Source: an uncultured Alphaproteobacteria bacterium
Lineage (GTDB): Bacteria; Pseudomonadota; Alphaproteobacteria; RF32; CAG-239
Assembly: GCA_944391395.1 (NCBI GenBank)
Contig: CALXTI010000009.1
Location: 1-50,474, forward strand
Reading direction: 5' to 3'
Length of the DNA stretch: 50,474 nt
Both the position numbers and the translations under genes were made by a program. A model generated the notes under the pieces. The model searched no databases. It saw nothing but the letters and a program-made list of their open reading frames with translations, and was not told the origin of the DNA. This document shows, one piece after another, positions 1 to 44,790 of this stretch (positions within the stretch are counted from its first letter, which is position 1; the number at the start of each line of letters is the position of its first letter).

Positions 1-378
1 TAAATAATCCAGTCCACCACCGGTTAGCCCGTTTAAGGCGCGGCCGGCACCGTATAGCATATCCGCCGTATTTTGTGTCAGATAATCGGTATAAGTGTTT
101 GGGATTTCCGGTCTGATTTGAGATGCCAGAGTTTTAGCTTTTTGACGCTCTTGTTCCGTCATCGGTTGTATGGTTGAAGACGATGTGTTTTGTTTGTTGC
201 CGTATCCGCCCCAAAAATCATTGTTTTGCGTCGGCTGCCAAAAGGAATTCGCATCTTCTGTTTCTTCTTCATCCCCATAATCCAATCCGTATAATTGCTG
301 CCACTCCGGTTCTTTTTGGCTGATGTAGTCTTTTATCACTTGTTCTTCCTGTCCTTTGGGCAAGAGCTTCTCTAAAGA
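1..378 (-). pseudogene. Orphan 5'-truncated copy of the toxin N-terminal module, continues past left edge
   Basis: The minus strand is open from position 378 to the window edge and encodes the same module as residues 56-174 of the gene at 43484-44584, including the landmarks QEEQVIKDYISQKEPEW, NSFWQ, MTEQERQKAK, NTYTDYL and LNGLTGGGLDYL. Homology starts abruptly at about 360. An in-frame TAA at 379-381 lies just upstream and no start codon precedes the module, so it is probably not translated as such. It follows the small membrane-protein gene at 394-579 by only about 15 bases, the same toxin, small ORF, orphan-module order seen at 41848-43298. A variable C-terminal domain is expected to the left of the window, but that is inference. 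Confidence 0.75.
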
Positions 379-393
379 TTAACATATTTGATC

Positions 394-579
394 TTACCAA
401 ACAATGGCGCTTTCGCATTCAGCATACGTCCGTTCTGGGAAATTCTGCATGCACTGTTCAATATTTTCTTCATCACCCCATGATAGCATTATAGCCCCCG
501 GCAATCCGATAGCTATAAGGACGACAACACAGACAAATACTAATTTCATAAAAAACTTTACTATACGCAAATTATTCAT
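394..579 (-). CDS. Small membrane protein, candidate immunity protein of the toxin at 572-1441
   Basis: A 61-residue protein with a basic N-terminus, one hydrophobic segment at about residues 9-31, and a short tail with two cysteines and several acidic residues. Its start codon lies inside the last codons of the upstream toxin gene (8-base overlap), a coupling typical of toxin-immunity pairs. The layout matches the 48-residue membrane ORF that overlaps the related toxin domain at 40884-41429. No family is recognised. The immunity role is inferred only from position, size and predicted inner-membrane location. Confidence 0.55.
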   Translation of the reverse strand: MNNLRIVKFFMKLVFVCVVVLIAIGLPGAIMLSWGDEENIEQCMQNFPERTYAECESAIVW

Positions 580-1441
580 TTTGTTTTTTCCATGTATTTG
601 TGTTTATATCCAAATCTTTAAGCCACATTCTAACACTTGCGTTCGGATTGTTCAAGCCCCAATTTAAGGATTCATCATTGTTATGTAAGTCCTTTTGACT
701 ATCTTTCAAAATTTCTAAAAACGGCTGTCCTTCTAAAACCTTTTTAGTTATATCAAACCCTTCTTTTGCATAACCCCAAAATTTTCCGGCAGGATATAAA
801 CCCGGTATATTATTCGCCTGTTGTCCTATCTGAGCCATGCCTAAACGATGATAATAATTATCACCATTAATAAGGTTTGCTTTGTCCATGTCCTTTTTAG
901 CCTGCAACAACATTCCTAAAGAATATCCAAGCGGGTAAAGTGGCAAGTTTTCATACAATATTTTTCCCGTATTTTCAATTATCGGATAATATTGTGCCAG
1001 ATAATCGGTATAAGTGTTTGGAATTTCCAGTCTGATTTGAGATGCCAGTGTTTTAGCTTTTTGATGCTCTTGTTCCGTCATCGGTTGTATGGTTGAAGAC
1101 GATGTGTTTTGTTTGTTGCCGTATCCGCCCCAAAAATCATTGTTTTGCGTCGGCTGCCAAAAGGAATTTGCATCTTCTGTTTCTTCTTTATCCTCATAAT
1201 CCAATCCGTATAACTGTTGCCATTCGGGTTCTTTTTGGCTGATGTAATCTTTTATAACTTGTTCTTCCTGCCCTTTGGGTGCCTGATAATATTTTCGGAT
1301 GATTCCTCTGACTTCTTCTTCCGGCAATTCGCTTGCTTTCGGATACATCCTCTTTATTACCTGATAATTATAACTGAACTTTTTATCCAGTCTTTCATCA
1401 TTATCACTCTCGTATGTATCTCCTCCAAATAAACTTCTCAT
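572..1441 (-). CDS. Polymorphic toxin-like protein: conserved N-terminal module plus variable C-terminal domain
   Basis: 289 residues. Residues 1-150 are nearly identical to residues 1-149 of the gene at 43484-44584; identity stops right after NTYTDYLAQ. Residues 151-289 form a different domain that is also found in the orphan cassette at 40884-41429. Shared features are an N/D-rich turn followed by HRLGM and IGQ, then a KE..D pair, a D-S-x-K-D segment, LNWGLNNP and W-LKDLD. The shared N-terminus with swapped C-termini is the mark of polymorphic toxins. The C-terminal activity is unknown; conserved His, Asp, Lys and Glu are candidates for function. No signal peptide is seen. The start is supported by GGAAGG upstream. 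Two hairpin terminators precede the gene. Confidence 0.7.
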   Translation of the reverse strand: MRSLFGGDTYESDNDERLDKKFSYNYQVIKRMYPKASELPEEEVRGIIRKYYQAPKGQEEQVIKDYISQKEPEWQQLYGLDYEDKEETEDANSFWQPTQNNDFWGGYGNKQNTSSSTIQPMTEQEHQKAKTLASQIRLEIPNTYTDYLAQYYPIIENTGKILYENLPLYPLGYSLGMLLQAKKDMDKANLINGDNYYHRLGMAQIGQQANNIPGLYPAGKFWGYAKEGFDITKKVLEGQPFLEILKDSQKDLHNNDESLNWGLNNPNASVRMWLKDLDINTNTWKKQNE

Positions 1442-1458: not shown

Positions 1459-1488
1459 AAAAAAACGCCCCTGTTTAAACAGAGGCGG
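1459..1488 (-). terminator. Hairpin terminator or attenuator just upstream of the toxin start codon
   Basis: The stem CGCCTCTG / CAGGGGCG around a TTTAAA loop is followed on the minus strand by seven T residues, ending only 17 bases before the ATG at 1441. A near copy lies at 40679-40706. Position between any upstream promoter and the ribosome-binding site suggests attenuation of toxin expression. Confidence 0.65.
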
Positions 1489-1502
1489 CTGCTTGTTGTT
1501 AT

Positions 1503-1595: not shown

Positions 1596-1639
1596 TGTAT
1601 CTTTTTGCCAACCTTTGTAATCTTTTGTATCGCTTTGTA
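1596..1639 (-). repeat. Short dispersed cassette repeat, copy 2
   Basis: A 44-base copy of a repeat also present at 2823-2880, 40214-40246 and 44651-44708, all in the same orientation. The core on the plus strand is GCCAACCTTTGTAATC followed by TTTTGTATCGCTTTGTA. Read on the minus strand it can encode SDTKDYKGWQKDT, which is the actual C-terminus (to GW) of the protein at 40209-40619. Copies lie next to toxin-cassette units, so it may mark cassette boundaries. Confidence 0.75.
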
Positions 1640-1707
1640 TCAAAACGATTTAAGGTATAAGAGCCGTTATCAAATCAATCAGATTTTCCCATAAAGAAGG
1701 CGTATTT

Positions 1708-2652
1708 TTATTTTTTTTTCTTAGTCTTTTCTTCGTGATAAAATTTATATAAAAATGCTATGACGGCCAAAACATACAACATATATGTCAAAATTTGCAG
1801 AAACACTGCATAAATACTGACCCGGTCTACAATGCGGTTATCAGCGTTTTCATAAACAAGTGCGGCTTGTTCATAACCCATTTCAACAAACGACAGATAA
1901 AGCGGCAAACCCAAATACGGCAATATGCCTATCCACTTTAACCCGACGGAAATTTTCGGATACCGTTTATACAAATTATCAAAACAAACCATTTTTTTCA
2001 TAAACAAAATAATCAGAGCACCCCACAGCAGACAAGGATAAAACAAAGCGTATAATGTATCGGTTACAATATTTTCACCAAACCAAACATCGCCATAATA
2101 AACCGGCAGCGAAACAAGTTGCATGATACCACCGAAAAGCAATAAATTTTGGATTTTATTGGTAAATCGCTCTTTGTTAAAAATACCTTTGAAATCAATG
2201 TCGATTTTTTCTTTTTCAACAATCGCTTTTCGTGCAGCATGATATAAGAATTTTACGCCGATTAAAAGTGCAAACACATAAAGGGTATATTTCCACACGT
2301 CTGCCGTTAATTGGTAACCGTATATCAAAATTGTCCTGAAAGAATCTCCGGCGGCAACCACATTATCGCATTTTCCGGCAAAGATAATGTTAGGCAGCGT
2401 AAAACAAAATCTTGCCCCGGCCGCTTTAAGCCAAAGGCTGAAAGCCGGGAATGTTTTTGAAAAATTTTTTCCGAAGATAAACTGCTTTTTAAATAAAACA
2501 GTAAATCCTGCAAAGATCATAAAAATTTCTGCCGGCAGCATAAAAGCTGATAAAGTGTCATTTTGAACATAATTTCCGATTAAGGAAAAAATTTCCAAAA
2601 ATCCCAAAACCAACAAAAAATTACTGATTTTTATCAGGATTTGCTGTTTCAT
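1708..2652 (-). CDS. Multi-spanning membrane protein with an internal duplication
   Basis: About 314 residues from the ATG at 2652, which has GAGG upstream. A longer frame starting at 2733 would overlap the small ORF at 2660-2812. Around eight hydrophobic segments are visible. The two halves resemble each other: both begin KI-x-N-LL, continue with a DTL-A--P motif before the second helix and end with a short K/W-rich segment (SLWLKAAG in the first half, SVGLKWIG in the second). This indicates an ancient tandem duplication. No family is recognised. It follows the 50-codon ORF by 7 bases, so it could be the immunity or partner protein of that cassette, which is inference. Confidence 0.65.
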   Translation of the reverse strand: MKQQILIKISNFLLVLGFLEIFSLIGNYVQNDTLSAFMLPAEIFMIFAGFTVLFKKQFIFGKNFSKTFPAFSLWLKAAGARFCFTLPNIIFAGKCDNVVAAGDSFRTILIYGYQLTADVWKYTLYVFALLIGVKFLYHAARKAIVEKEKIDIDFKGIFNKERFTNKIQNLLLFGGIMQLVSLPVYYGDVWFGENIVTDTLYALFYPCLLWGALIILFMKKMVCFDNLYKRYPKISVGLKWIGILPYLGLPLYLSFVEMGYEQAALVYENADNRIVDRVSIYAVFLQILTYMLYVLAVIAFLYKFYHEEKTKKKK

Positions 2653-2659
2653 GTTAACC

Positions 2660-2812
2660 TCACTTCTTTTTTTTACAGTTTTTATCTTTTGCCGCTTTGG
2701 CTCTGGCTGCATAAGCCCCTGCTTTAGGTGCAAATTTTGCCGCTTTTAATCCATATTTGATTGCGACGTTGGGAACTCTGTCTATCACGGCATCAAGCCC
2801 TCTGTCTATCAT
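2660..2812 (-). CDS. Small basic ORF, possible remnant of a toxin C-terminal region
   Basis: 50 codons starting at ATG 2812, encoding an Ala/Lys-rich peptide (VPNVAIKYGLKAAKF followed by APKAGAYAARAKAAKD and a lysine tail). It ends 7 bases before the ATG of the membrane protein at 1708-2652, so the pair is probably co-transcribed. It lies immediately after the 2823-2880 repeat, in the place where the other units have a toxin gene. The compact lysine-rich sequence could be the tail of a larger, lost protein. No family is recognised. Confidence 0.4.
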   Translation of the reverse strand: MIDRGLDAVIDRVPNVAIKYGLKAAKFAPKAGAYAARAKAAKDKNCKKKK

Positions 2813-2822
2813 TTTATCTACT

Positions 2823-2880
2823 GTCTTGTATCATGATGTATCTTTTTGCCAACTTTTGTAATCTTTTGTATCACTTTATA
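2823..2880 (-). repeat. Short dispersed cassette repeat, copy 1 (58 bases)
   Basis: Matches the 58-base copy at 44651-44708 with only a few substitutions across its whole length. Minus-strand reading gives SDTKDYKSWQKDTS and a stop. It separates the housekeeping-side gene at 2898-3350 from the accessory region to its left, which fits a boundary element. Confidence 0.75.
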
Positions 2881-5632: not shown

Positions 5633-6031
5633 AGGGTGGCCGGATAGCCGCGCTGCGGAAAGGAAAATCCGCGGGTGAGGAAAGTCCGGGCTTCATGGAA
5701 ACGGGATACCGGATAACGTCCGGCTGGAGAGATCCAAGGGAAAGCGCCGCAGAAAACTACCGCCGGACTATATGTCCGGTAAGGGTGAAAAGGTGAGGCA
5801 AGAGCTCACCGCTGGCATAGCAATATGACAGGCTTTAGGCAAGCCCTATCCGATGTAAGACCAAATTAGGATTTATCAGAAGCTTGCTTCTGACGAGGCG
5901 TTTCCACCTTGTCCAAGGGTAGGTCGCGAAAGCAAGCCGGCAACGGCTTGTTAAGATGAATGGCTATCGCTGCAATCTTTGCCTTGTCGCAAAGCAATGG
6001 CAGGCACAGAACCCGGCTTATAGGCCACCAA
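5633..6031 (+). ncRNA. rnpB: RNase P RNA, bacterial class A
   Basis: The catalytic RNA that matures tRNA 5' ends. The universal P4 strands are present: GAGGAAAGTCCGGGCT near 5677 and ACAGAACCCGGCTTATAGGCC near 6006. The ends pair (GGTGGCC at 5635 with GGCCACC at 6023), closing helix P1. Internal hairpins and the AGGGTGAAAAGGTG segment fit the class A fold. Length is close to 400 nt, as usual. It is transcribed towards lpxC with only about 28 bases between them, so read-through into lpxC is possible. Confidence 0.95.
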
Positions 6032-6058
6032 CTTTTTTAAACGGAAAGGTTAAATTTT

Positions 6059-6916
6059 ATGTGGCAGCAAACATTAAAACAACCAATCAAGATAGAAGGA
6101 ACCGGCCTGCATTCCGGTTGTCCGTCGGTACTGACCTTAAAGCCGGCGGCGGAAAATACCGGTATAGTTTTTAGCCGGACCGAAAATGGGAAAAACGTCA
6201 AAATCCCCGCACTTTACAATCAGGTTACCGATACCCGCAACTGTACCTGTCTGGGACAGGACGGCGTTTTGATAAGTACGATTGAACACTTAATGGCGGC
6301 GCTTTATGCGGCGGGTATAGACAATCTGGAAATTGAATGTTCCAATCGGGAATTGCCGATTATGGATGGCAGTGGCGCCGTGTTTTACAAGATTTTGCAA
6401 AATGCTGAAAAAACCGGACAGAACGCGCCGAGGAAATACTTAAAAGTTTTGCGTTCCGTTGAGTTTGCCGATGACAAGGGCAACAGCATTGAATTAAAGC
6501 CCAACAACGGCAAAGCCTTGCATATTCGTTTTGATATTGAATTTCCGTCAAAAATTGTCGGTCATCAGACTTTTGATGATGACATAACGGCCGATACTTT
6601 TGCCGCCGCCGTAGCGCCCAGCCGCACATTTTGTGAAAAATATCAGATTGATTATTTACGTTCAATCGGACTGATTAAAGGCGGCAGCTTGGATAACGCG
6701 GTTGTTTTGGACGGTGAAAATATTTTAAATCCCGGCGGTTTTCGGGTCAAAAACGAGTGCGTCAACCACAAGGTTTTGGATGCCGTGGGCGATTTGTACA
6801 CTTCCGGCTGCTTTGTTTTGGCCGATGTCAAGGCATATCGTACCGGACATTTTCATAATAATGAAGTTTTGAAAAAACTTTTTGCGGATAAAGAAAATTA
6901 CGAGATTGTTGAATAA
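6059..6916 (+). CDS. lpxC: UDP-3-O-acyl-N-acetylglucosamine deacetylase
   Basis: 285 residues, somewhat shorter than the usual 300 or so at the C-terminus. This zinc enzyme does the committed step of lipid A synthesis. Zinc ligands are His78 (STIEHLMAAL), His237 and Asp241 (HKVLDAVGDL); the general acid/base His264 lies in RTGHFHNN. The start TLKQPIKIEGTGLHSG is diagnostic. GGAAAGG precedes the ATG. It heads lpxC-bamD-recN, an order known from alphaproteobacteria. Confidence 0.97.
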   Translation: MWQQTLKQPIKIEGTGLHSGCPSVLTLKPAAENTGIVFSRTENGKNVKIPALYNQVTDTRNCTCLGQDGVLISTIEHLMAALYAAGIDNLEIECSNRELPIMDGSGAVFYKILQNAEKTGQNAPRKYLKVLRSVEFADDKGNSIELKPNNGKALHIRFDIEFPSKIVGHQTFDDDITADTFAAAVAPSRTFCEKYQIDYLRSIGLIKGGSLDNAVVLDGENILNPGGFRVKNECVNHKVLDAVGDLYTSGCFVLADVKAYRTGHFHNNEVLKKLFADKENYEIVE

Positions 6917-12608: not shown

Positions 12609-13151
12609 TTATTTTAATGTATGAGAAAGAGAAGTATCGACAATGGCGCGCCCTGTCAAAAGATTGCGGCCGATTAAAGCCTGATATTCAAAATTGTCGC
12701 GTTTGGCGAGTGTGAATTCGGAAGAAAATTTTTTGCCGCCGAAACGAACGTTTAAGGAAACTTTTATTCGGTGTTCTTTATGGTCAATGCGTTTAATAAT
12801 CAGATTTTCTATAATCGGTCGTTCAAAGGTGTGCGTTTCGCCGCTGCGCCGGTTGGTAACTTTGAAAGAAACCCATTTTTCGCCGTCGCGTTCAAATTCA
12901 ACGATTTCGTCGGCATCAATGGAAGACGTTGTCGCGCCGGTATCAATCCGAGCCTCAAAAGCTGACTTCATTGGCAGAAAATAAATAGGTTCCACGGCGC
13001 CGATAATGTCAAGGTCCGTCGTTTTAACAATAGTGGCTTTCTGGTCATTCGGAACAATTGCCGGAACGATGGATGTTTTTCCGGAACTTTGGCAGCCGTT
13101 TAAGAATAAAGTCAAACTAAAAATACCCAACATTTTTGCTATATTTCTCAT
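12609..13151 (-). CDS. Retropepsin-like aspartic protease family lipoprotein
   Basis: 180 residues. The signal ends with LFLNGC, a lipobox, so it is probably a periplasm-facing lipoprotein. The core carries ARIDTGATTSSIDA, the D-T-G-A catalytic motif of retropepsin-like proteases (family long annotated as 'ATP-dependent zinc protease', PF05618 type), and ends with ALIGRNLLTGRAIVDTS. It is the first gene of the trio. The known family role is in proteolysis linked to the ligase partner; the substrate here is unknown. Confidence 0.85.
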   Translation of the reverse strand: MRNIAKMLGIFSLTLFLNGCQSSGKTSIVPAIVPNDQKATIVKTTDLDIIGAVEPIYFLPMKSAFEARIDTGATTSSIDADEIVEFERDGEKWVSFKVTNRRSGETHTFERPIIENLIIKRIDHKEHRIKVSLNVRFGGKKFSSEFTLAKRDNFEYQALIGRNLLTGRAIVDTSLSHTLK

Positions 13152-13243
13152 ACATATTTTCCCAATAAAATATAATTTACTATTTTTAAGCTTATTTCTG
13201 TTTGAATGTAAAGCAAAATTATCAAGTTAGACATAAAAAAATG

Positions 13244-13273
13244 TTGTATTTTTTAGAGAAAATATGTTATATT
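13244..13273 (+). promoter_or_regulatory. Candidate promoter of the 13297-14346 gene
   Basis: TTGTAT at 13244-13249 and TATATT at 13268-13273, 18-base spacer. A GGAAGG ribosome-binding site follows before the ATG at 13297. Confidence 0.5.
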
Positions 13274-13296
13274 ATGTCTAAAGACGGAAGGTTGTC

Positions 13297-14346
13297 ATGA
13301 CCAAAGAAAAGTTGTTGGAACGTATCAGAAAAATGAAAAACGGGCAGTCAAAAACAAAACCCGTAAAAAAAGTGCGTCATTTGTCCCGCCAGGCATTTCC
13401 GGAAACAACCCGCCAAAAATGTATCAAATTCGGCCGTCAGGCAAAAAAGATTTTGATGTTGTCGACGATATCGCTACTGACCCTTGTTCCGGGAGGTAAA
13501 GATGCAATACCGGCAACGTTGGAAAATCTCAGAGAGGCGCAGAATCATCTTGAGGTTATGGAAAACAAGCGCCAACAGACGATTGATGAAATTGTCGCCC
13601 GTCAGACGGCGAATTTGCAAAAAGAAATCTTATCAAACGTCAGCACGCTGCAACAAGATATTACGATTGCCAAAAGGCAGGGAAAGCGCAACGCCGTCGT
13701 TAAAAAAATTTTTGACAACGTTTACGAAAGAGGCGGACTGCTCGGCAGCATGAATTATTGTGTCGCCGGCGCCATGTATGCCCAACGAATGTGTCAAGAC
13801 AGCGTTTTGTCTGCGATATTGCCCGACCCGGCAAAAACGGCACGGGATTACGATTTTAGCGGTCATCCAAATGTTTCCTGCCCTTACATGCGGCAATTTT
13901 TTGAGCAAAACTTGGGCGACAATTACGCCGAACGCAATGATAAAAATTTTAAAGAATTTGTCAAAACTTTGGAAGCCGGAGACATCATAACGATTTCTTC
14001 ATCTCAAAACACTTCTACCGGCGAGCATTGTGTAACTTGTGCCGGTCCGGTCGTCGATGGCCAAATTCCGGTTAAAAGCTTAAACGGCGAACGTGATTAT
14101 GAAGTTCCCGTCAACCGCATCGTCGGTGCGGCCAAAGTGATGGCGCAATATCGGGAAAATCTGGGAAAAGAGCTAAACAACGAGCTTGATATACAAAGTT
14201 ATATGGCGCTTGCGGCTGAAGGTTCTATTGTCTTTACAAGTCAAACCCAGGATTTTTCAAGGTTTGCCGATGAAAATTCCGCGAACGGACAACATTCTCC
14301 GTCTAAATTAAAATTTGAAAAAGACAACGCTCGCGACATGAGCTGA
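13297..14346 (+). CDS. Putative membrane-anchored or exported cysteine-peptidase-like protein
   Basis: 349 residues, no family recognised with certainty. A basic N-terminal part (residues 1-50) precedes a single hydrophobic segment (about 52-67), then a coiled-coil (75-130) and a globular domain. That domain has Cys155 in MNYCVAGAMYAQ, a GDIITISSS strand, His244 in TGEHCVTCAGP and Asn263 in SLNGER. The order Cys, His, Asn with GD before the His strand resembles papain/CHAP/NlpC-type cysteine peptidases, so peptidoglycan or peptide cleavage is possible. The gene stands alone between divergent and convergent neighbours and has a clear promoter. Confidence 0.6.
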   Translation: MTKEKLLERIRKMKNGQSKTKPVKKVRHLSRQAFPETTRQKCIKFGRQAKKILMLSTISLLTLVPGGKDAIPATLENLREAQNHLEVMENKRQQTIDEIVARQTANLQKEILSNVSTLQQDITIAKRQGKRNAVVKKIFDNVYERGGLLGSMNYCVAGAMYAQRMCQDSVLSAILPDPAKTARDYDFSGHPNVSCPYMRQFFEQNLGDNYAERNDKNFKEFVKTLEAGDIITISSSQNTSTGEHCVTCAGPVVDGQIPVKSLNGERDYEVPVNRIVGAAKVMAQYRENLGKELNNELDIQSYMALAAEGSIVFTSQTQDFSRFADENSANGQHSPSKLKFEKDNARDMS

Positions 14347-40168: not shown

Positions 40169-40204
40169 AACCCCCGCTTTTTTAACAAGAGCGGGGGGTT
40201 GCTT
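40169..40204 (+). terminator. Terminator after the small membrane protein
   Basis: CCCCCGCT pairs with AGCGGGGGG across a T-rich loop, then a TT-rich tail. It may also act for the minus-strand cassette ORFs. Confidence 0.75.
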
Positions 40205-40208
40205 TAAA

Positions 40209-40619
40209 TCATAGCCAACCTTTGTAATCTTTTGCATCGCTTTGTATCAAACAAGCATCAGGGTATATCCAGTCCCCAACAAGTTTATGACATTCGTTTT
40301 CGATAAAATCAAACTTACAAACATGTGTGGCAAGATTATATGCCTTTTGATTACGCAAACATATTTGCCGATACATTTCGTCAGTTATACAATTCCCAGA
40401 GGTTAAACAATTCTGTATAGTTTGAGTTTCTTCTTCCGTTAATTTAATACAACCAAAATCTTTATGCCATTTCAAGCAATCATGGCGGCACTTTTGAGAA
40501 TCATAATCCCATACACCGCGATTATCCAAGCAGGTATCAATCCTTAAAAAAACAAATATTTTCCACAAAACGGGAAACATCAGAATGCATAAAATCATAA
40601 AAAATATTTTTTTCTTCAC
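40209..40619 (-). CDS. Cysteine-rich membrane-anchored protein, candidate immunity or partner protein
   Basis: 136 residues with a hydrophobic anchor (residues 5-25) and about ten cysteines in an outer domain, including CLDNRGVWDYDSQKC and CLKWHKDFGC. The C-terminus is IQSDAKDYKGWL, encoded by the dispersed cassette repeat. It lies behind the toxin cassette at 40884-41429. A 9-codon ghost of the toxin start (ATG at about 40658 with a matching leader) precedes it, so it once followed a complete toxin gene. The role is inferred. Confidence 0.6.
   Translation of the reverse strand: MKKKIFFMILCILMFPVLWKIFVFLRIDTCLDNRGVWDYDSQKCRHDCLKWHKDFGCIKLTEEETQTIQNCLTSGNCITDEMYRQICLRNQKAYNLATHVCKFDFIENECHKLVGDWIYPDACLIQSDAKDYKGWL
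40214..40246 (-). repeat. Short dispersed cassette repeat, copy 3, within the 3' end of the 40209-40619 gene
   Basis: 33-base copy of the repeat at 1596, 2823 and 44651. Here it codes for the last residues of a protein. It bounds the left side of the toxin array. Confidence 0.75.
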
Positions 40620-40678
40620 TTTTTTACTCTATTCAATATTTCTCATTTATACCACGCATTTGATTTTTTCCTTTCATT

Positions 40679-40706
40679 AAAAAAACGTCCCTGTTTAAAC
40701 AAAGAC
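40679..40706 (-). terminator. Leader hairpin, copy of the one at 1459-1488
   Basis: CGTCTTTG / CAGGGACG around TTTAAA, followed on the minus strand by TTTTTTT and AATGAAAGGAAAAAATC. This is the toxin-gene leader, now followed by only a few toxin codons. Confidence 0.65.
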
Positions 40707-40740
40707 GGTTGTTATTTCTTTAATACCGATATTGCCACTA

Positions 40741-40887
40741 TTATAATTTATAAGTTGAATAAATGATGGCAGTTATAAATAAAAAAACAAGAAAAGCAAA
40801 CAAAATACGAGCTATAAAGGTTACTTTCTCCAACATGTTCAGAATGTTTTTATTGTTTTTGCAGCGATTCCAGAAATCAAGTATCAT
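40741..40887 (-). CDS. Small membrane protein overlapping the toxin stop codon, candidate immunity protein
   Basis: 48 residues (not visible as a long ORF): an N-terminal part rich in Lys and Asn, then a hydrophobic helix (residues 25-43, IARILFAFLVFLFITAII). Its ATG overlaps the toxin TGA in an ATGA junction, a sign of coupling. Compare the 8-base overlap at 572-579. Confidence 0.55.
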   Translation of the reverse strand: MILDFWNRCKNNKNILNMLEKVTFIARILFAFLVFLFITAIIYSTYKL

Positions 40888-41429
40888 TTTTTCCATTCAT
40901 TTTCCCTAAAATCCAAATCTTTTAACCATATTCTACAATCCTTATCGGGATTGTTCAAGCCCCAATTTAAGCCCTTCCAATTGTTTTTCATATCTTTATA
41001 GGAATCATTTAAAGTATTTTTCCAAGGTTTGTTGTTTTTAATTGATTTATCATAAATGTCTTTAACCTCTTTTAAAGCTCCTAAAGTTACCCCCACAGTA
41101 GGACTTAAAAAATTCACATTGCCCATTTGTCCTATGCGGCACATGCCAAGTCTATGCGCGTAGTTATCATATCCTACCATATTCATTCTATCCATTTCGT
41201 TTTTAGCATCTTTTAATGTCTTATATTCCGGGAGATAACTAAAAGCTTTATCTATTATTTTCATACTGTCGAAATTATGTGAATGTTTACTTAAATCATT
41301 ATCTTCATCAAAATACTGTGCTTGCCACTCCGGTTCTTTTTGGCTGATGTAATCTTTTATGGCTTGCTCTTCCTGCCCTTTGGGCGCCTGATAATATTTT
41401 CGGATAATTCCTCTGACTTCTTCTTCCGG
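40884..41429 (-). pseudogene. Orphan toxin cassette: truncated module plus HRLGM-type domain
   Basis: The frame is open for 181 codons from just after an in-frame TAG at 41430-41432, with no upstream start. The first part is module residues 39-73 (EEEVRGIIRKYYQAPKG to EPEW), the rest a domain homologous to the C-terminus of 572-1441: DNYAHRLGM, IGQMGN, KEVKDIYD, DSYKDMKNN, LNWGLNNPD, WLKDLDF. It could be expressed only after recombination or from the internal ATG at 41264 (126 codons). Confidence 0.7.
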
Positions 41430-41512
41430 CTATTGGTGTTGTTACAACGCGCATTTTCCATCTGGCAGCATCTTTTCTTGACTTTTTATTTGTTTTATGG
41501 TATATGGATGAT
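41430..41512 (-). repeat. 83-base junction repeat, copy 1
   Basis: 81 of 83 bases match 43299-43381. On the minus strand it carries KMRVVTTPI followed by G-R-R, resembling KMQTVTTPINGQRT in the intact toxin; it therefore looks like a decayed 3' end of a nuclease-type domain fused to the truncated module. Confidence 0.75.
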
Positions 41513-41756
41513 ATCCACTAATGAGATAGGAAAGTGGTGACCGCTCATTTAGTATCCTTATTATTCGCCGGAAAAGAAGATAAGAGAATGGATAAAGGCT
41601 CGCTTAAGCGAGCCTTTTTTATGATTCGAACGTAACACTGCCTGCGTAAACAGGTAGATATAGAAATACCAGCCCAGCCGTAAGGCTTGCGTAGCTTAGG
41701 GCTGGGTGAACGTGGTTCGGAACGGTTAATAACCACTTGCGTCAGCTAGTGGAAGT
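41433..41756. other. Non-coding stretch between orphan cassettes
   Basis: Contains the rest of the 83-base junction repeat, a terminator at 41595-41620 and the hairpin element at 41623-41759. No ORF with features of a gene is seen. Confidence 0.7.
41595..41620 (+). terminator. Strong hairpin terminator
   Basis: AAGGCTCGCTTAAGCGAGCC followed by TTTTTT. Works best on the plus strand and isolates the cassette at 41848-42180 from the one at 40884. Confidence 0.8.
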
Positions 41757-41759
41757 TTA
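41623..41759 (-). repeat. Dispersed 3'-end element with hairpin, copy B
   Basis: 137 bases related to 27231-27354 in opposite orientation: GATTCGAACG, CAGCCC-hairpin-GGGCTG and GTTCGGAACGGTTAAT are shared. One end coincides with the stop codon of the nuclease-like tail at 41757. Confidence 0.65.
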
Positions 41760-41860
41760 TCTATCAATCTTGTACATTGAAGATATTGTCTTACCATTTG
41801 GGGTGGTTGAAGTTATAACTCTATACTTCCCATCCGGTCTTGATATTTCATATATATTTT
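41757..41860 (-). pseudogene. Out-of-frame tail of a nuclease-like toxin domain
   Basis: In a frame shifted from the module, the sequence encodes GQNIYEISRPDGKYRVITST and TTPNGKTISSMYKIDR then a stop. It aligns to GQDIYVTMTPEGKMQTVTTP and INGQRTISSFYKFDK of the intact gene. The module in its own frame instead ends DYLAQNWAKYI. CAAAAT occurs in both joined pieces, suggesting a microhomology fusion. Confidence 0.75.
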
Positions 41861-42180
41861 GCCCAATTTTGTGCCAGATAATCGGTATAAGTGTTTGGGA
41901 TTTCCGGTCTGATTTGAGATGCCAGAGTTTTAGCTTTTTGACGCTCTTGTTCCGTCATCGGTTGTACGGCTGAAGACGATGTGTTTTGTCTGTTGCCATA
42001 GCCACCCCAAAAATCATTGTTTTGCGTCGACTGCCAAAAGGAATTCGCATCTTTCACCTCTTCTTTATCCTCATAATCCAATCCGTATAACTGGTGCCAC
42101 TTCGGTTCTTTTTGCCGGATGTAATCTTTTATGGCTTGCTCTTCCTGACCTTGAGGCGCTTGATAATATTTTCGGATGAT
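41848..42180 (-). pseudogene. Orphan truncated module, fused to a nuclease-like tail out of frame
   Basis: Module residues about 46-150 (IIRKYYQAPQGQEEQ to NTYTDYLAQ), starting directly after the stop of the small membrane ORF at 42188-42463. No start codon upstream in frame, apart from the internal ATG at 42081. The frame stops at 41848, after which the shifted nuclease tail follows. Confidence 0.7.
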
Positions 42181-42187
42181 AAAAAAA

Positions 42188-42463
42188 TCATGGATAAAAA
42201 TATAACCAATGCAGTGTCTTTTGTATTACCCAAGGTGAATACAATATTTGCATAATTAAATATGAAAATAAAAAGCCAACACAAATATATGTTATGTTTT
42301 TATCTTTATATAAAAGCCAAATTCCCAGCAACGGCACAGCCAAGACAAAATACAAATGACATAAAACATATGTGTTAAACCCTTGGCTTAATATAAAAAG
42401 CACTGATACAATCAGCCAAAATTCATAAAATCCCAACAGTATTTTCTTTTCTAACAAGGCCAT
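42188..42463 (-). CDS. Membrane protein, candidate immunity protein of the Tlde1-like toxin
   Basis: 91 residues with three hydrophobic segments and few charges (LLGFYEFWLIVSVLFILSQG onward). Downstream of the L,D-transpeptidase-like domain. Immunity proteins of Tlde1 effectors are known to act at the periplasmic side of the membrane, so the location would fit; the family match itself is not established. Confidence 0.5.
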   Translation of the reverse strand: MALLEKKILLGFYEFWLIVSVLFILSQGFNTYVLCHLYFVLAVPLLGIWLLYKDKNITYICVGFLFSYLIMQILYSPWVIQKTLHWLYFYP

Positions 42464-42591
42464 ATGTATACCTCGTCAAATAAAGATTGCCCGACATTAT
42501 ACGCCTGAAATATATCTAATTTTAACCACCAGCAACCTATAAGAACGCCCAAAATGAAAAATATAAATTTTAACATGATATGTTTTTTCAT
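42451..42591 (-). CDS. Small anchored peptide between toxin and 91-residue membrane protein
   Basis: 46 codons from ATG 42591: basic start (MKKHIMLK), hydrophobic helix to about residue 20, then LDIFQAYNVGQSLFDE facing the periplasm. It starts 35 bases after the toxin stop and overlaps the 91-residue ORF by 13 bases. A possible immunity gene; it was too short for usual gene calling. Confidence 0.45.
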   Translation of the reverse strand: MKKHIMLKFIFFILGVLIGCWWLKLDIFQAYNVGQSLFDEVYIWPC

Positions 42592-42626
42592 ATCAAATAT
42601 GATACATTTTAATCATTAAAAACATA

Positions 42627-43298
42627 TTACCAAGAATCAGATTTATATTTGACCGTTACCGGAATATCATCGCCATAAACATCAATTATTCTGCTAAATC
42701 CGGGCATCTCAAGTCCTAAATCTATACATCCTGCAGATCCTAAGCCATTATAACTGCCGTGTAGATAAAATCCATCACGACCAAACCTTTTCTCCGGCGA
42801 TAGCAATGGTGTCAATTTAATTCTTCTTCGCCCCCAAGAGTTTAAAAAGCTGGGATTTTCATCATACGGCATTTTAAAATCCTCAATATCGGAATACTTT
42901 AACAGCCACTTTCCTTCAGGGATTGGTCCTTTATCCGCAACGTTTGTTGCACCTTTATACTGAAACTGAGGAAAACCTGATTGAGCCCTAAAACTTCCAT
43001 ATACATTATTATCTTCATCAACAACCGTGAATTTTTCTCCATTAAATTCAGCTCTTAGTACAGGTTTAATTTTTCTTTTTGACAGATTATCAATTTTATT
43101 AAAATGTTTATTCATTTTATCACTGCTTGACCAAAAGGAATTTGCATCTTCAACCTCTTCTTTATCCTCATAATCCAATCCGTATAATTGCTGCCACTCC
43201 GGTTCTTTTTGCCGGATGTAATCTTTTATAACTTGTTCTTCCTGCCCTTTGGGTGCCTGATAATATTTTCGGATGATTCCTCTGACTTCTTCTTCCGT
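42627..43298 (-). pseudogene. Orphan toxin cassette: truncated module plus Tlde1/DUF2778-like L,D-transpeptidase domain
   Basis: The frame is open from just after a TAG at 43299-43301 and has no normal start; an internal ATG at 43178 would give 183 residues. Module part: EEEVRGII to DANSFW. C-terminal domain: VYGSFRAQSGFPQF, KGPIPEGKW, RRRIKLTP, then HGSYNGLGSAGCIDL (His140 and Cys151 in the 183-residue numbering). This His, Ser-x-Gly-Cys pattern is that of L,D-transpeptidases of the Tlde1 type, which act on peptidoglycan in the periplasm as type VI secretion toxins. Followed by small membrane ORFs that may be immunity genes. Confidence 0.8.
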
Positions 43299-43381
43299 CT
43301 ATCGGTGTTGTTACAACGCGCATTTTCCATCTGGCAGCATCTTTTCTTGACTTTTTATTTGTTTTATGGTATATAGATGAT
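43299..43381 (-). repeat. 83-base junction repeat, copy 2
   Basis: Nearly identical to 41430-41512 and also ends in the in-frame TAG just before a truncated module. Encodes WKMRVVTTPIDGRR-like sequence in one frame, similar to the nuclease tail of the intact gene. Confidence 0.75.
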
Positions 43382-43457
43382 GTCTTCCGGCGGTAACAAG
43401 ATTGAAATTGCCCGCTGTCGTATCTCTGTCCCGCGAACAGGCGATCAGAGGAGTAGA

Positions 43458-43484
43458 CCGGCTCCGTTTTTTAGCGGAGCCCTT
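43458..43484. terminator. Hairpin behind the intact toxin gene
   Basis: GGCTCCG pairs with CGGAGCC directly after the stop codon of the gene at 43484-44584. T tracts are weak on both strands. Confidence 0.6.
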
Positions 43485-44584
43485 TATTTATCAAACTTAT
43501 AAAAAGATGATATGGTCCTCTGCCCGTTTATCGGAGTTGTTACTGTTTGCATTTTTCCTTCCGGTGTCATTGTTACATAAATATCCTGCCCACGTGGCGA
43601 AATATCAACCGGCGTCTGGCGGATATATTTTGGCAAACTTTGCGCTTCCGGTTTGCTGACATTATGCTTATAAATCGCTTTATTCAAGCCATAGTTGCGA
43701 GCTGTGCCGTATTCGTGTTGTAAAGGGCGCCCCGATGTAATAACCTCGCCATTCTGTCCTGGGATGGCTTCTCCTCTTTGCAACAGAACGGTTTCGCCGT
43801 TATGGTTTTTCATACGGGCAATTACATCCTGTCCCGAGCCCTGATAGGGGTTTTTGCTGAGCCGGTCGTAGGCTCTGCCGATTTGCCAACTGTTATAATG
43901 CGGCCGTATAACATTTGTTCCTGTTCTGCCCAAGCTATATGCGCTCATTCCCAAGCCGCCGAGTTGTGCCATATTTCCTAATTGACGGGTAAGATTGCCC
44001 GTGCCTTCTTCATCTTTGAAATCTAAATAATCTTCCATACGCGTATCAATTCCGTATCTGTCTCCTAAATAATCCAGTCCACCACCGGTTAGCCCGTTTA
44101 AGGCGCGGCCGGCACCGTATACCATATCCGCTGTATTTTGTGCCAGATAATCGGTATAAGTGTTTGGGATTTCCGATCTGATTTGAGATGCCAATGTTTT
44201 AGCTCTCTGACGCTCTTGTTCCGTCATTGGTTGTATGGTTGAAGACGATGTGTTTTGTTTGTTGTCGTATCCGCCCCCAAAGTCATTGTTTTGTGGCGAC
44301 TGCCAAAAGGAATTTGAATCTTCCACCTCTTCTTTACCCTCATCATCCAATCCGTATAATTGCTGCCACTCCGGTTCTTTTTGGCTGATGTAATCTTTTA
44401 TAACTTGCTCTTCCTGCCCTTTAGGCGCCTGATAATATTTTTGAATGATTCCCCTGACTTCTTCTTCCGGCAATTCGCTTGCTTTCGGATACATCCTCTT
44501 TATCACCTGATAATTATAACTGAACTTCCTATCCAGTCTTTCATCGTTATCACTCTCGTAATTATTTTGAAAAATGCTGTTCAT
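43484..44584 (-). CDS. Full-length polymorphic toxin-like protein with nuclease-like C-terminal domain
   Basis: 366 residues. Residues 1-149 are the repeated module. Residues 150-225 (ALNGLTGGGLDYLGDRYGID, QLGNMAQLGGLGMSAYSLG) are glycine-rich and helical, possibly membrane-crossing. Residues 255-366 form a compact domain with GETVLLQRGEAIPGQNGEVI, NYGLNKAIYKH, LPKYIRQTPVDI and GKMQTVTTPINGQRTISSFYK. This pattern looks like phage barnase/EndoU/ColicinE5/D/RelE-like (PBECR-type) nucleases, in memory; not verified. No obvious immunity ORF follows. GAAAGGAAAAAATCAAATG supplies the start. Confidence 0.7.
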   Translation of the reverse strand: MNSIFQNNYESDNDERLDRKFSYNYQVIKRMYPKASELPEEEVRGIIQKYYQAPKGQEEQVIKDYISQKEPEWQQLYGLDDEGKEEVEDSNSFWQSPQNNDFGGGYDNKQNTSSSTIQPMTEQERQRAKTLASQIRSEIPNTYTDYLAQNTADMVYGAGRALNGLTGGGLDYLGDRYGIDTRMEDYLDFKDEEGTGNLTRQLGNMAQLGGLGMSAYSLGRTGTNVIRPHYNSWQIGRAYDRLSKNPYQGSGQDVIARMKNHNGETVLLQRGEAIPGQNGEVITSGRPLQHEYGTARNYGLNKAIYKHNVSKPEAQSLPKYIRQTPVDISPRGQDIYVTMTPEGKMQTVTTPINGQRTISSFYKFDK

Positions 44585-44650
44585 TTGATTTTTTCCTTTC
44601 CTGAATTATGGTTAAAATCAAAGAAAGGTTAACACGTTTTATATGTGGTT

Positions 44651-44708
44651 GTCTTGTATCGTGATGTATCTTTTTGCCAACCTTTGTAATCTTTTGTATC
44701 GCTTTGTA
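44651..44708 (-). repeat. Short dispersed cassette repeat, copy 4 (58 bases)
   Basis: Same direction as the copies at 2823-2880, 1596-1639 and 40214-40246; upstream of the toxin at 44584. Together with the copy at 40214 it brackets the whole toxin array. Confidence 0.75.
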
Positions 44709-44790
44709 ACCTGTGTTGATTGAAAAAATAATTGCCAAACAACTTTGTTGATGCTAATTTAGCAGCATAAAAAACGTGGAGTTTGATTTT

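What the first reader, a model, noticed from the sequence alone, without database searches (positions are those of the whole stretch)
43299..43381. 83-base junction repeat hides decayed 3' ends of nuclease-like genes
Both copies (41430-41512 and 43299-43381, 81/83 identical) end with TAG followed directly by the truncated module at the same residue. One frame reads KMRVVTTPI-G-R-R, resembling KMQTVTTPINGQR in the intact gene. Cassette breakpoints therefore fall inside an older toxin gene.
Basis: partly seen in the sequence, partly recalled or inferred. Interest (0 to 1): 0.65.

Follow-up and report, generated by a model that had tools for sequence, protein, structure and literature searches.

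The report
Silent toxin cassettes beside phage genes
The 83-base repeat is a scar: a conserved stretch that follows one kind of toxin gene, plus a broken piece of a second copy of that gene, fused to the middle of another toxin gene and then copied, leaving switched-off spare toxins in a gut bacterium whose toxins appear to be built on a phage delivery protein.

Summary
The repeat is real: 81/83 identical, minus strand. It occurs a third time in this genome (C28) and once in a second species (G002). It is composite. The first ~48 nt are a conserved spacer found 6/6 times 100-250 bp behind one toxin-gene family, without similarity to that gene. The last ~35 nt are that toxin's 3' tail: in C28 they run on to the natural stop (KMRVVTTPIDERRMISSMHKIDR*; score 67, shuffles at most 36). 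The tail is joined at an 8-11-nt microhomology to codon ~39 of a shared N-terminal module, two codons after a TAG, removing start codon and ribosome-binding site. The same joint in two species with different toxin ends behind it means one old event, then copying by recombination in the module. Beyond that, these are silent orphan cassettes of a polymorphic-toxin system whose N-module also begins two large ejection-like proteins of a podovirus-like locus under strong purifying selection (capsid dN/dS 0.02). Several toxin ends are 95-99% identical between species while their modules are not, showing exchange. Virion delivery is inferred; 'nuclease' is unconfirmed. It resembles CdiA orphan arrays and MuF phage toxins but belongs to neither.

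The parts
43334..43381 (-). Repeat copy 2, nt 1-48: conserved spacer behind this toxin type
43299..43333 (-). Repeat copy 2, nt 49-83: 3' tail of a decayed toxin gene; begins in shared CAGATGGAAAA
43287..43297 (-). Joint to N-module at CGGAAGAAGAA (module codon ~39)
41465..41512 (-). Repeat copy 1, spacer part
41430..41464 (-). Repeat copy 1, toxin-tail part
41418..41428 (-). Joint to N-module, copy 1
43484..44584 (-). Full-length toxin gene, 366 aa: N-module 44135-44584, middle 43925-44134, toxin end 43484-43894 (class unconfirmed)
42627..43298 (-). Orphan cassette: truncated N-module plus Tlde1-like end (42627-43118), no usable start found
42188..42463 (-). Candidate membrane immunity gene of the Tlde1-like cassette, 91 aa
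41757..42180 (-). Collapsed cassette: truncated N-module (41866-42180) joined out of frame to a toxin tail; intact homolog at G002 C14 11633-12607
40884..41429 (-). Orphan cassette: truncated N-module (41313-41429) plus CTx end (40884-41264)
40741..40887 (-). Candidate membrane immunity gene of the CTx cassette, 48 aa
40209..40619 (-). Immunity-like ORF, 136 aa; homolog at G002 C14 6724
1..1441 (-). Second array at the left end: full-length cassette 584-1441, immunity candidate 394-579, truncated cassette 1-363
40214..40246 (-). Iteron-like direct repeat at one end of the array
44640..44710 (-). Iteron-like element upstream of the full-length cassette

Best explanation
The window holds a chromosomal array of polymorphic-toxin cassettes. 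Each functional gene is a shared N-module (about 80-150 aa) plus an exchangeable toxin end, followed by a small immunity gene. The 83-bp repeat is a deletion scar in this array: the spacer that follows one toxin type became joined to the 3' tail of a decayed copy of that toxin, and this tail became joined at a short microhomology to codon ~39 of an N-module. That removed the upstream region, ribosome-binding site and start codon, so the toxin ends behind it should be silent while their immunity genes stay intact. The scar was then copied: homologous recombination inside the remaining module placed different toxin ends (Tlde1-like, CTx) behind it. Such orphans most likely serve as an immunity bank and as donors that re-arm the system when the module recombines with a full-length gene. 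The N-module also begins two large ejection-like proteins of a podovirus-like locus, so it most likely targets the toxins into a phage or phage-derived particle that injects them into competitors. Shown: anatomy, joints, loss of start signals, closer module similarity within genomes, exchange of toxin ends, purifying selection on particle genes. Inferred: order of events, silence, donor role, delivery by the particle, toxicity and immunity.
For: Composite repeat. Same joint in G002 with a different toxin end. Microhomology: of all possible joins of the toxin end with the module, 0.04-0.07% share 8 nt or more. Start loss: the 12 full-length copies checked have a purine-rich RBS and ATG, the truncated ones do not. 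Exchange: toxin ends 95-99.5% identical in DNA between G000 and G002 (Tlde1, lys, yyp), while the upstream module halves of testable ortholog pairs are 74-87% identical and have closer paralogs in their own genome; Tlde1 dS 0.04 versus mfd dS 0.10. Immunity kept where the toxin is lost: G2C14 6279-6500. Phage context; dN/dS 0.02-0.19. No T6SS sheath gene. Precedent: orphan cdiA-CT fragments lack initiation signals and immunity is made (PMC3150448).
Against: Only two genomes carry the strong N-module family, and the assemblies are fragmented (G002 is a MAG), so array order rests on few contigs. The window array is not next to phage structural genes. No family or fold search names this toxin end or the N-module. 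No expression, toxicity or particle data. One shared toxin type (361) is not unusually similar between species (77.8%). The microhomology to the C28-type tail is 8 nt, not 11.
Confidence: 0.72

Rival explanations
1. The 83-bp repeat is an active recombination site: a recombinase or repeat-borne system uses it to move toxin cassettes, and the resemblance to a toxin tail is incidental.
For: It sits at cassette borders, is 96-99% conserved in two species, and is preceded by a hairpin with a covarying stem.
Against: Found only behind one toxin type, not at the borders of the other cassettes; C28 shows the tail running on to a natural toxin end; joints lie at microhomologies and differ between copies (spacer joined to tail, to CTx, or to a small ORF).
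Confidence: 0.07
2. Plain decay: the array is a graveyard of toxin genes, deletions join whatever short repeats allow, and the truncated cassettes have no function as donors or immunity bank.
For: Frameshifts and internal deletions in several copies; truncated cassettes lack start signals.
Against: Tlde1 end and its immunity differ mostly at synonymous sites (dN/dS 0.13 and 0.10; few changes); immunity ORFs intact where toxins are lost; toxin ends exchanged between species.
Confidence: 0.2
3. The N-module proteins are phage cell-wall or host-takeover proteins ejected with DNA for the phage's own infection, not weapons against competitors; the small ORFs are not immunity proteins.
For: Peptidoglycan-type ends (Tlde1, GH108) and ejection-like position of the large proteins; PMC5512222 describes such injected phage proteins.
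Against: Many different ends per genome, each followed by a specific small secreted or membrane ORF kept together in both species; arrays away from the phage genes; orphan cassettes.
Confidence: 0.2
4. Assembly artefact: repeats in fragmented assemblies were joined wrongly.
For: 39 contigs, several ending in the N-module.
Against: The same joint occurs in an independently assembled second species with lineage-specific differences.
Confidence: 0.04

Closest known systems
Orphan cdiA-CT/cdiI and rhs-CT modules (Poole et al. 2011, PMC3150448)
   Same: Arrays of toxin-end fragments without initiation signals, each with an immunity ORF and a stretch of homology to the full-length gene that allows exchange.
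   Different: The shared part is not CdiA or Rhs; here it is the start of podovirus ejection-like proteins, and the 5' cap is a fused toxin tail plus spacer.
MuF polymorphic toxins of temperate phages (Jamet et al. 2017, PMC5576092)
   Same: Toxin ends on a phage-type protein near portal and terminase genes, small ORFs behind; predicted virion loading and injection.
   Different: No MuF domain found; podovirus-like locus of gut Alphaproteobacteria; many cassettes per genome plus orphan arrays, whereas phages nearly always had one muf gene.
Polyvalent proteins with PBECR ribonuclease domains (Iyer et al. 2017, PMC5512222)
   Same: Predicted virion-injected proteins; the toxin end here has a helix region followed by His and a late Ser/Thr strand resembling the PBECR layout (by eye).
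   Different: No PBECR profile match and no confirmed fold; short modular toxins with immunity genes.
Polymorphic toxin cassettes in general (Zhang et al. 2012, PMC3482391)
   Same: Constant 5' part and exchangeable 3' toxin cassettes that move with immunity genes.
   Different: N-module matches no described trafficking domain; the delivery route differs from those listed.

Membership tests
Polymorphic toxin system with orphan cassettes | Conserved N-terminal part joined to many unrelated C-terminal ends within a genome | tested here: met
   16 N-module hits in G000 and 13 in G002 with at least six kinds of ends
Polymorphic toxin system with orphan cassettes | At least some ends are known toxin domains | tested here: met
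   Tlde1 domain (E 8e-6 but 3.5 bits below Pfam's cutoff; Tlde1a structure E 0.0012); GH108 and peptidoglycan-binding above cutoff
Polymorphic toxin system with orphan cassettes | Cognate immunity gene behind each end | tested here: inconclusive
   Small secreted or membrane ORFs behind the same ends in both genomes; neutralisation cannot be tested here
Polymorphic toxin system with orphan cassettes | Orphan modules lacking initiation signals | tested here: met
Polymorphic toxin system with orphan cassettes | Exchange of ends by recombination in the shared part | tested here: met
   two genomes only
MuF polymorphic toxins | MuF domain (PF04233/PF06152) | tested here: not met
   no such Pfam hit in N-module proteins or the two ejection-like proteins
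MuF polymorphic toxins | Encoded next to phage portal/terminase genes | tested here: met
   G002 C14 and G000 C25 cassettes; the window array itself is not
CDI (CdiA) or T6SS effectors | FHA/two-partner or VgrG/PAAR/Rhs N-terminus, or T6SS genes in the genome | tested here: not met
   no such Pfam domain; VipB absent from the genome
PBECR / BECR nuclease (toxin end 43484-43894) | Profile match, or BECR fold with His in helix 1 and Ser/Thr in a late strand | tested here: inconclusive
   no profile match; low-confidence models; no significant fold match
Podovirus ejection protein | Position after the tail genes and virion location | tested here: inconclusive
   N-module begins two large proteins between p221 and fibre, where an IMG/VR relative has long proteins; virion location not testable
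Gene transfer agent / domesticated particle | Structural cluster without integrase or replication genes, kept by selection | tested here: inconclusive
   ~13 kb core in G006 between host genes, no integrase seen; low dN/dS; patchy, 9 of 153 genomes

The most novel reading that the evidence does not exclude
A podovirus-like particle in uncultured gut Alphaproteobacteria uses the N-terminus of its ejection proteins as a loading tag for a large exchangeable arsenal of antibacterial toxins; silent cassettes and immunity genes are stored in chromosomal arrays away from the phage genes and are re-armed by recombination in the tag.
Probability: 0.4. Interest if true: 0.85.

Novelty: new variant of a known kind. 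Interest (0 to 1): 0.55.

Why it matters
If right, an ejection-protein N-terminus joins MuF as a phage-based delivery tag for polymorphic toxins. It also gives a natural case in which toxin shuffling can be read base by base: a scar shared by two species, toxin ends exchanged behind it, immunity genes kept. It would suggest that phage-like particles carry weapons in a little-studied group of gut bacteria, which can be tested with particle proteomics.

Tried and rejected
Recombinase-site reading: the repeat or its spacer was found only behind one toxin type. Rfam: nothing for hairpin or spacer; a strict pattern search in the own genome found only one window copy, so the spread of the hairpin is unknown. 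INPHARED phages: no match to N-module, toxin gene or portal. IMG/VR: no match to N-module or toxin end; portal relatives found. A search with alignment A4 failed for lack of conserved stretches. Toxin end outside the genus: none in 289 genomes of the class. Toxin-end structure: models too weak (mean pLDDT 43.5 and 53.9); the best Foldseek hit, a CDI complex at E 0.14, is not significant; no known nuclease stands out in the VIA list. A first pattern scan was uninformative. Alignments sent for folding (A6, A7) held only window proteins and proteins from related-loci loci.

Full report
What was claimed and what is there. The two copies (41430-41512, 43299-43381) are 81/83 identical within a 193-nt repeat. 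All relevant genes lie on the minus strand. The genome (G000, 1.48 Mb, 39 contigs) holds a third copy at C28:311-386. A second species of the genus (G002, an uncultured Alphaproteobacteria MAG, CALXZJ01) holds a fourth at C14:12851-12933 and two partial copies. Of 126 genomes of the family, the others show at most short AT-rich matches.

Anatomy of the repeat. Nt 1-48 (ATCATCTATATACCATAAAACAAATAAAAAGTCAAGAAAAGATGCTGC) are a spacer. All six occurrences lie 100-250 bp behind the stop of a member of the toxin family encoded at 43484-44584. They show no similarity to the toxin gene's end (1609 of 2000 shuffles as good). Nt 49-83 are the toxin's 3' tail with a one-base deletion. In C28 this tail continues to the natural end, KMRVVTTPIDERRMISSMHKIDR*, and aligns to the intact toxin with score 67 against a shuffle maximum of 36. 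The 38-nt tail part of the window copy also matches the toxin's last 117 nt better than all 5000 shuffles. Spacer and tail meet inside CAGATGGAAAA, present in both sources; tail and module meet at CGGAAGAAGAA. At other copies the spacer is joined to the middle of another toxin (G2C14 6279) or leads to a 39-aa membrane ORF (G2C14 31513).

Consequence. In the module frame a TAG lies two codons before the first kept codons, and no start with an RBS follows, while the 12 full-length copies checked have a purine-rich RBS and ATG. The toxin ends behind the joint should be silent. Their immunity candidates (40741-40887, 42188-42463) are intact. Two further truncation joints exist, at residue ~46 behind the Tlde1 immunity and at ~54 behind another immunity gene. 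The residue-54 joint is the same base for base in both species; the residue-46 joint is at nearly the same place with a different short filler. So truncated cassettes start at residues 39-54, but only the 83-bp type carries a toxin tail.

One event, then copying. G002 has the same joint with a different, decayed toxin end. Its module part is closest to a G002 paralog (95.5%), and that of window copy 2 to a G000 paralog (97.3%); window copy 1 shows no such preference. The Tlde1 cassette of G002 has an intact N-module. From the module onward the window cassette matches it at 94% over 1,447 nt; upstream it matches the G002 joint instead. The switch lies in the module, as expected of homologous recombination there.

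Exchange of toxin ends. For cassettes shared by the two species, toxin-end DNA identity is 98.8% (Tlde1), 95.4% (lysozyme-like) and 99.5% (YYP type), but 77.8% for the 361 type. The upstream module halves of the testable ortholog pairs are 74-87% identical, and each has a closer paralog in its own genome (90-100%). Averaged over all pairs the within-genome excess is modest (83.9 against 78.5%). Tlde1 dS is 0.04 against 0.10 for the chromosomal gene mfd. The sample is two genomes.

The wider system. The N-module (150 aa) gives 16 hits in G000 and 13 in G002. In G002 one contig carries repressor, terminase, cassettes, portal, scaffold, capsid, two tail proteins, p221, two large N-module proteins, fibre, more cassettes and endolysin. 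The large proteins lie between p221 and fibre, where a related viral contig has long proteins. The core without such cassettes recurs in G001, G006 and G020 and partly in others, 9 of 153 genomes of the order by portal. G001 has toxin/immunity-like genes in the terminase-portal interval on a different shared N-module. Core genes have dN/dS 0.02-0.19, so the particle is probably functional. No integrase was seen near it, and no T6SS sheath gene in the genome.

What is not shown. Delivery by the particle, toxicity, immunity and silence are inferences. Neither the toxin end 43484-43894 nor the N-module matches any family, and structure models are weak. 'Nuclease' rests on a resemblance by eye to PBECR domains (PMC5512222). 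N-module residues 21-77 are predicted helical with moderate confidence.

Verdict. It needs three corrections: the repeat is composite, the joints are one event that was copied, and the enzyme class is unproven. As a system it works like orphan cdiA-CT arrays (PMC3150448) in organisation and like MuF toxins (PMC5576092) in phage context, without being a member of either.

Noticed in passing
window 44640-44710 (-), 40214-40246 (-), 1596-1641 (-), 2822-2880 (-); G000 C25:346; G002 C14:3560 and 7105; G002 C31:2719: Iteron-like element of phased GATACA/GATTACA repeats ahead of cassette arrays; direct copies bound the window array. Also upstream of a weak N-module-like gene at G000:C1 ~53.0 kb. Regulator site or promoter?
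   Followed up: partly
window 43388-43424 (-), 41522-41560 (-); L022:263-302 and 505-544; L031:6184-6223: GATAC followed by a hairpin with covarying stem and a GCGATT..ATCTT-type loop behind this toxin type; no Rfam family.
   Followed up: partly
L061:9080-9667 and 13040-14323 (G001): Same genus, same phage locus, but toxin-like genes on an unrelated shared N-module (MTNKKYNPFADMYNF...), with ends related to those of G000: phage-specific loading modules with shared toxin ends?
   Followed up: partly
window 40174-44723 versus G002 C31 and C33: In G002 mfd neighbours the membrane-protein gene (window 1622-2827) with one N-module remnant; in G000 the two are far apart, each next to an array: rearrangement or insertion at the arrays (assembly error not excluded).
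   Followed up: partly
window 40686-40707 (-); similar upstream of cassettes at 1460-1490 (-) and L022:690-715: Terminator-like hairpin with T-run directly before the RBS of cassette genes; possible attenuation.
   Followed up: no
window 40630-40665 (-): A cassette start (RBS and ATG) survives with only eight codons before a stop, followed by immunity-like gene 40209-40619: another toxin deletion with immunity kept.
   Followed up: no
L070:7796-9928 (G006 C16), L020:4737-6036: Tandem arrays of 3-4 homologous immunity-like genes behind one toxin gene.
   Followed up: no
window 5634-6036 (+): Bacterial RNase P RNA class A (Rfam RF00010), ordinary.
   Followed up: no
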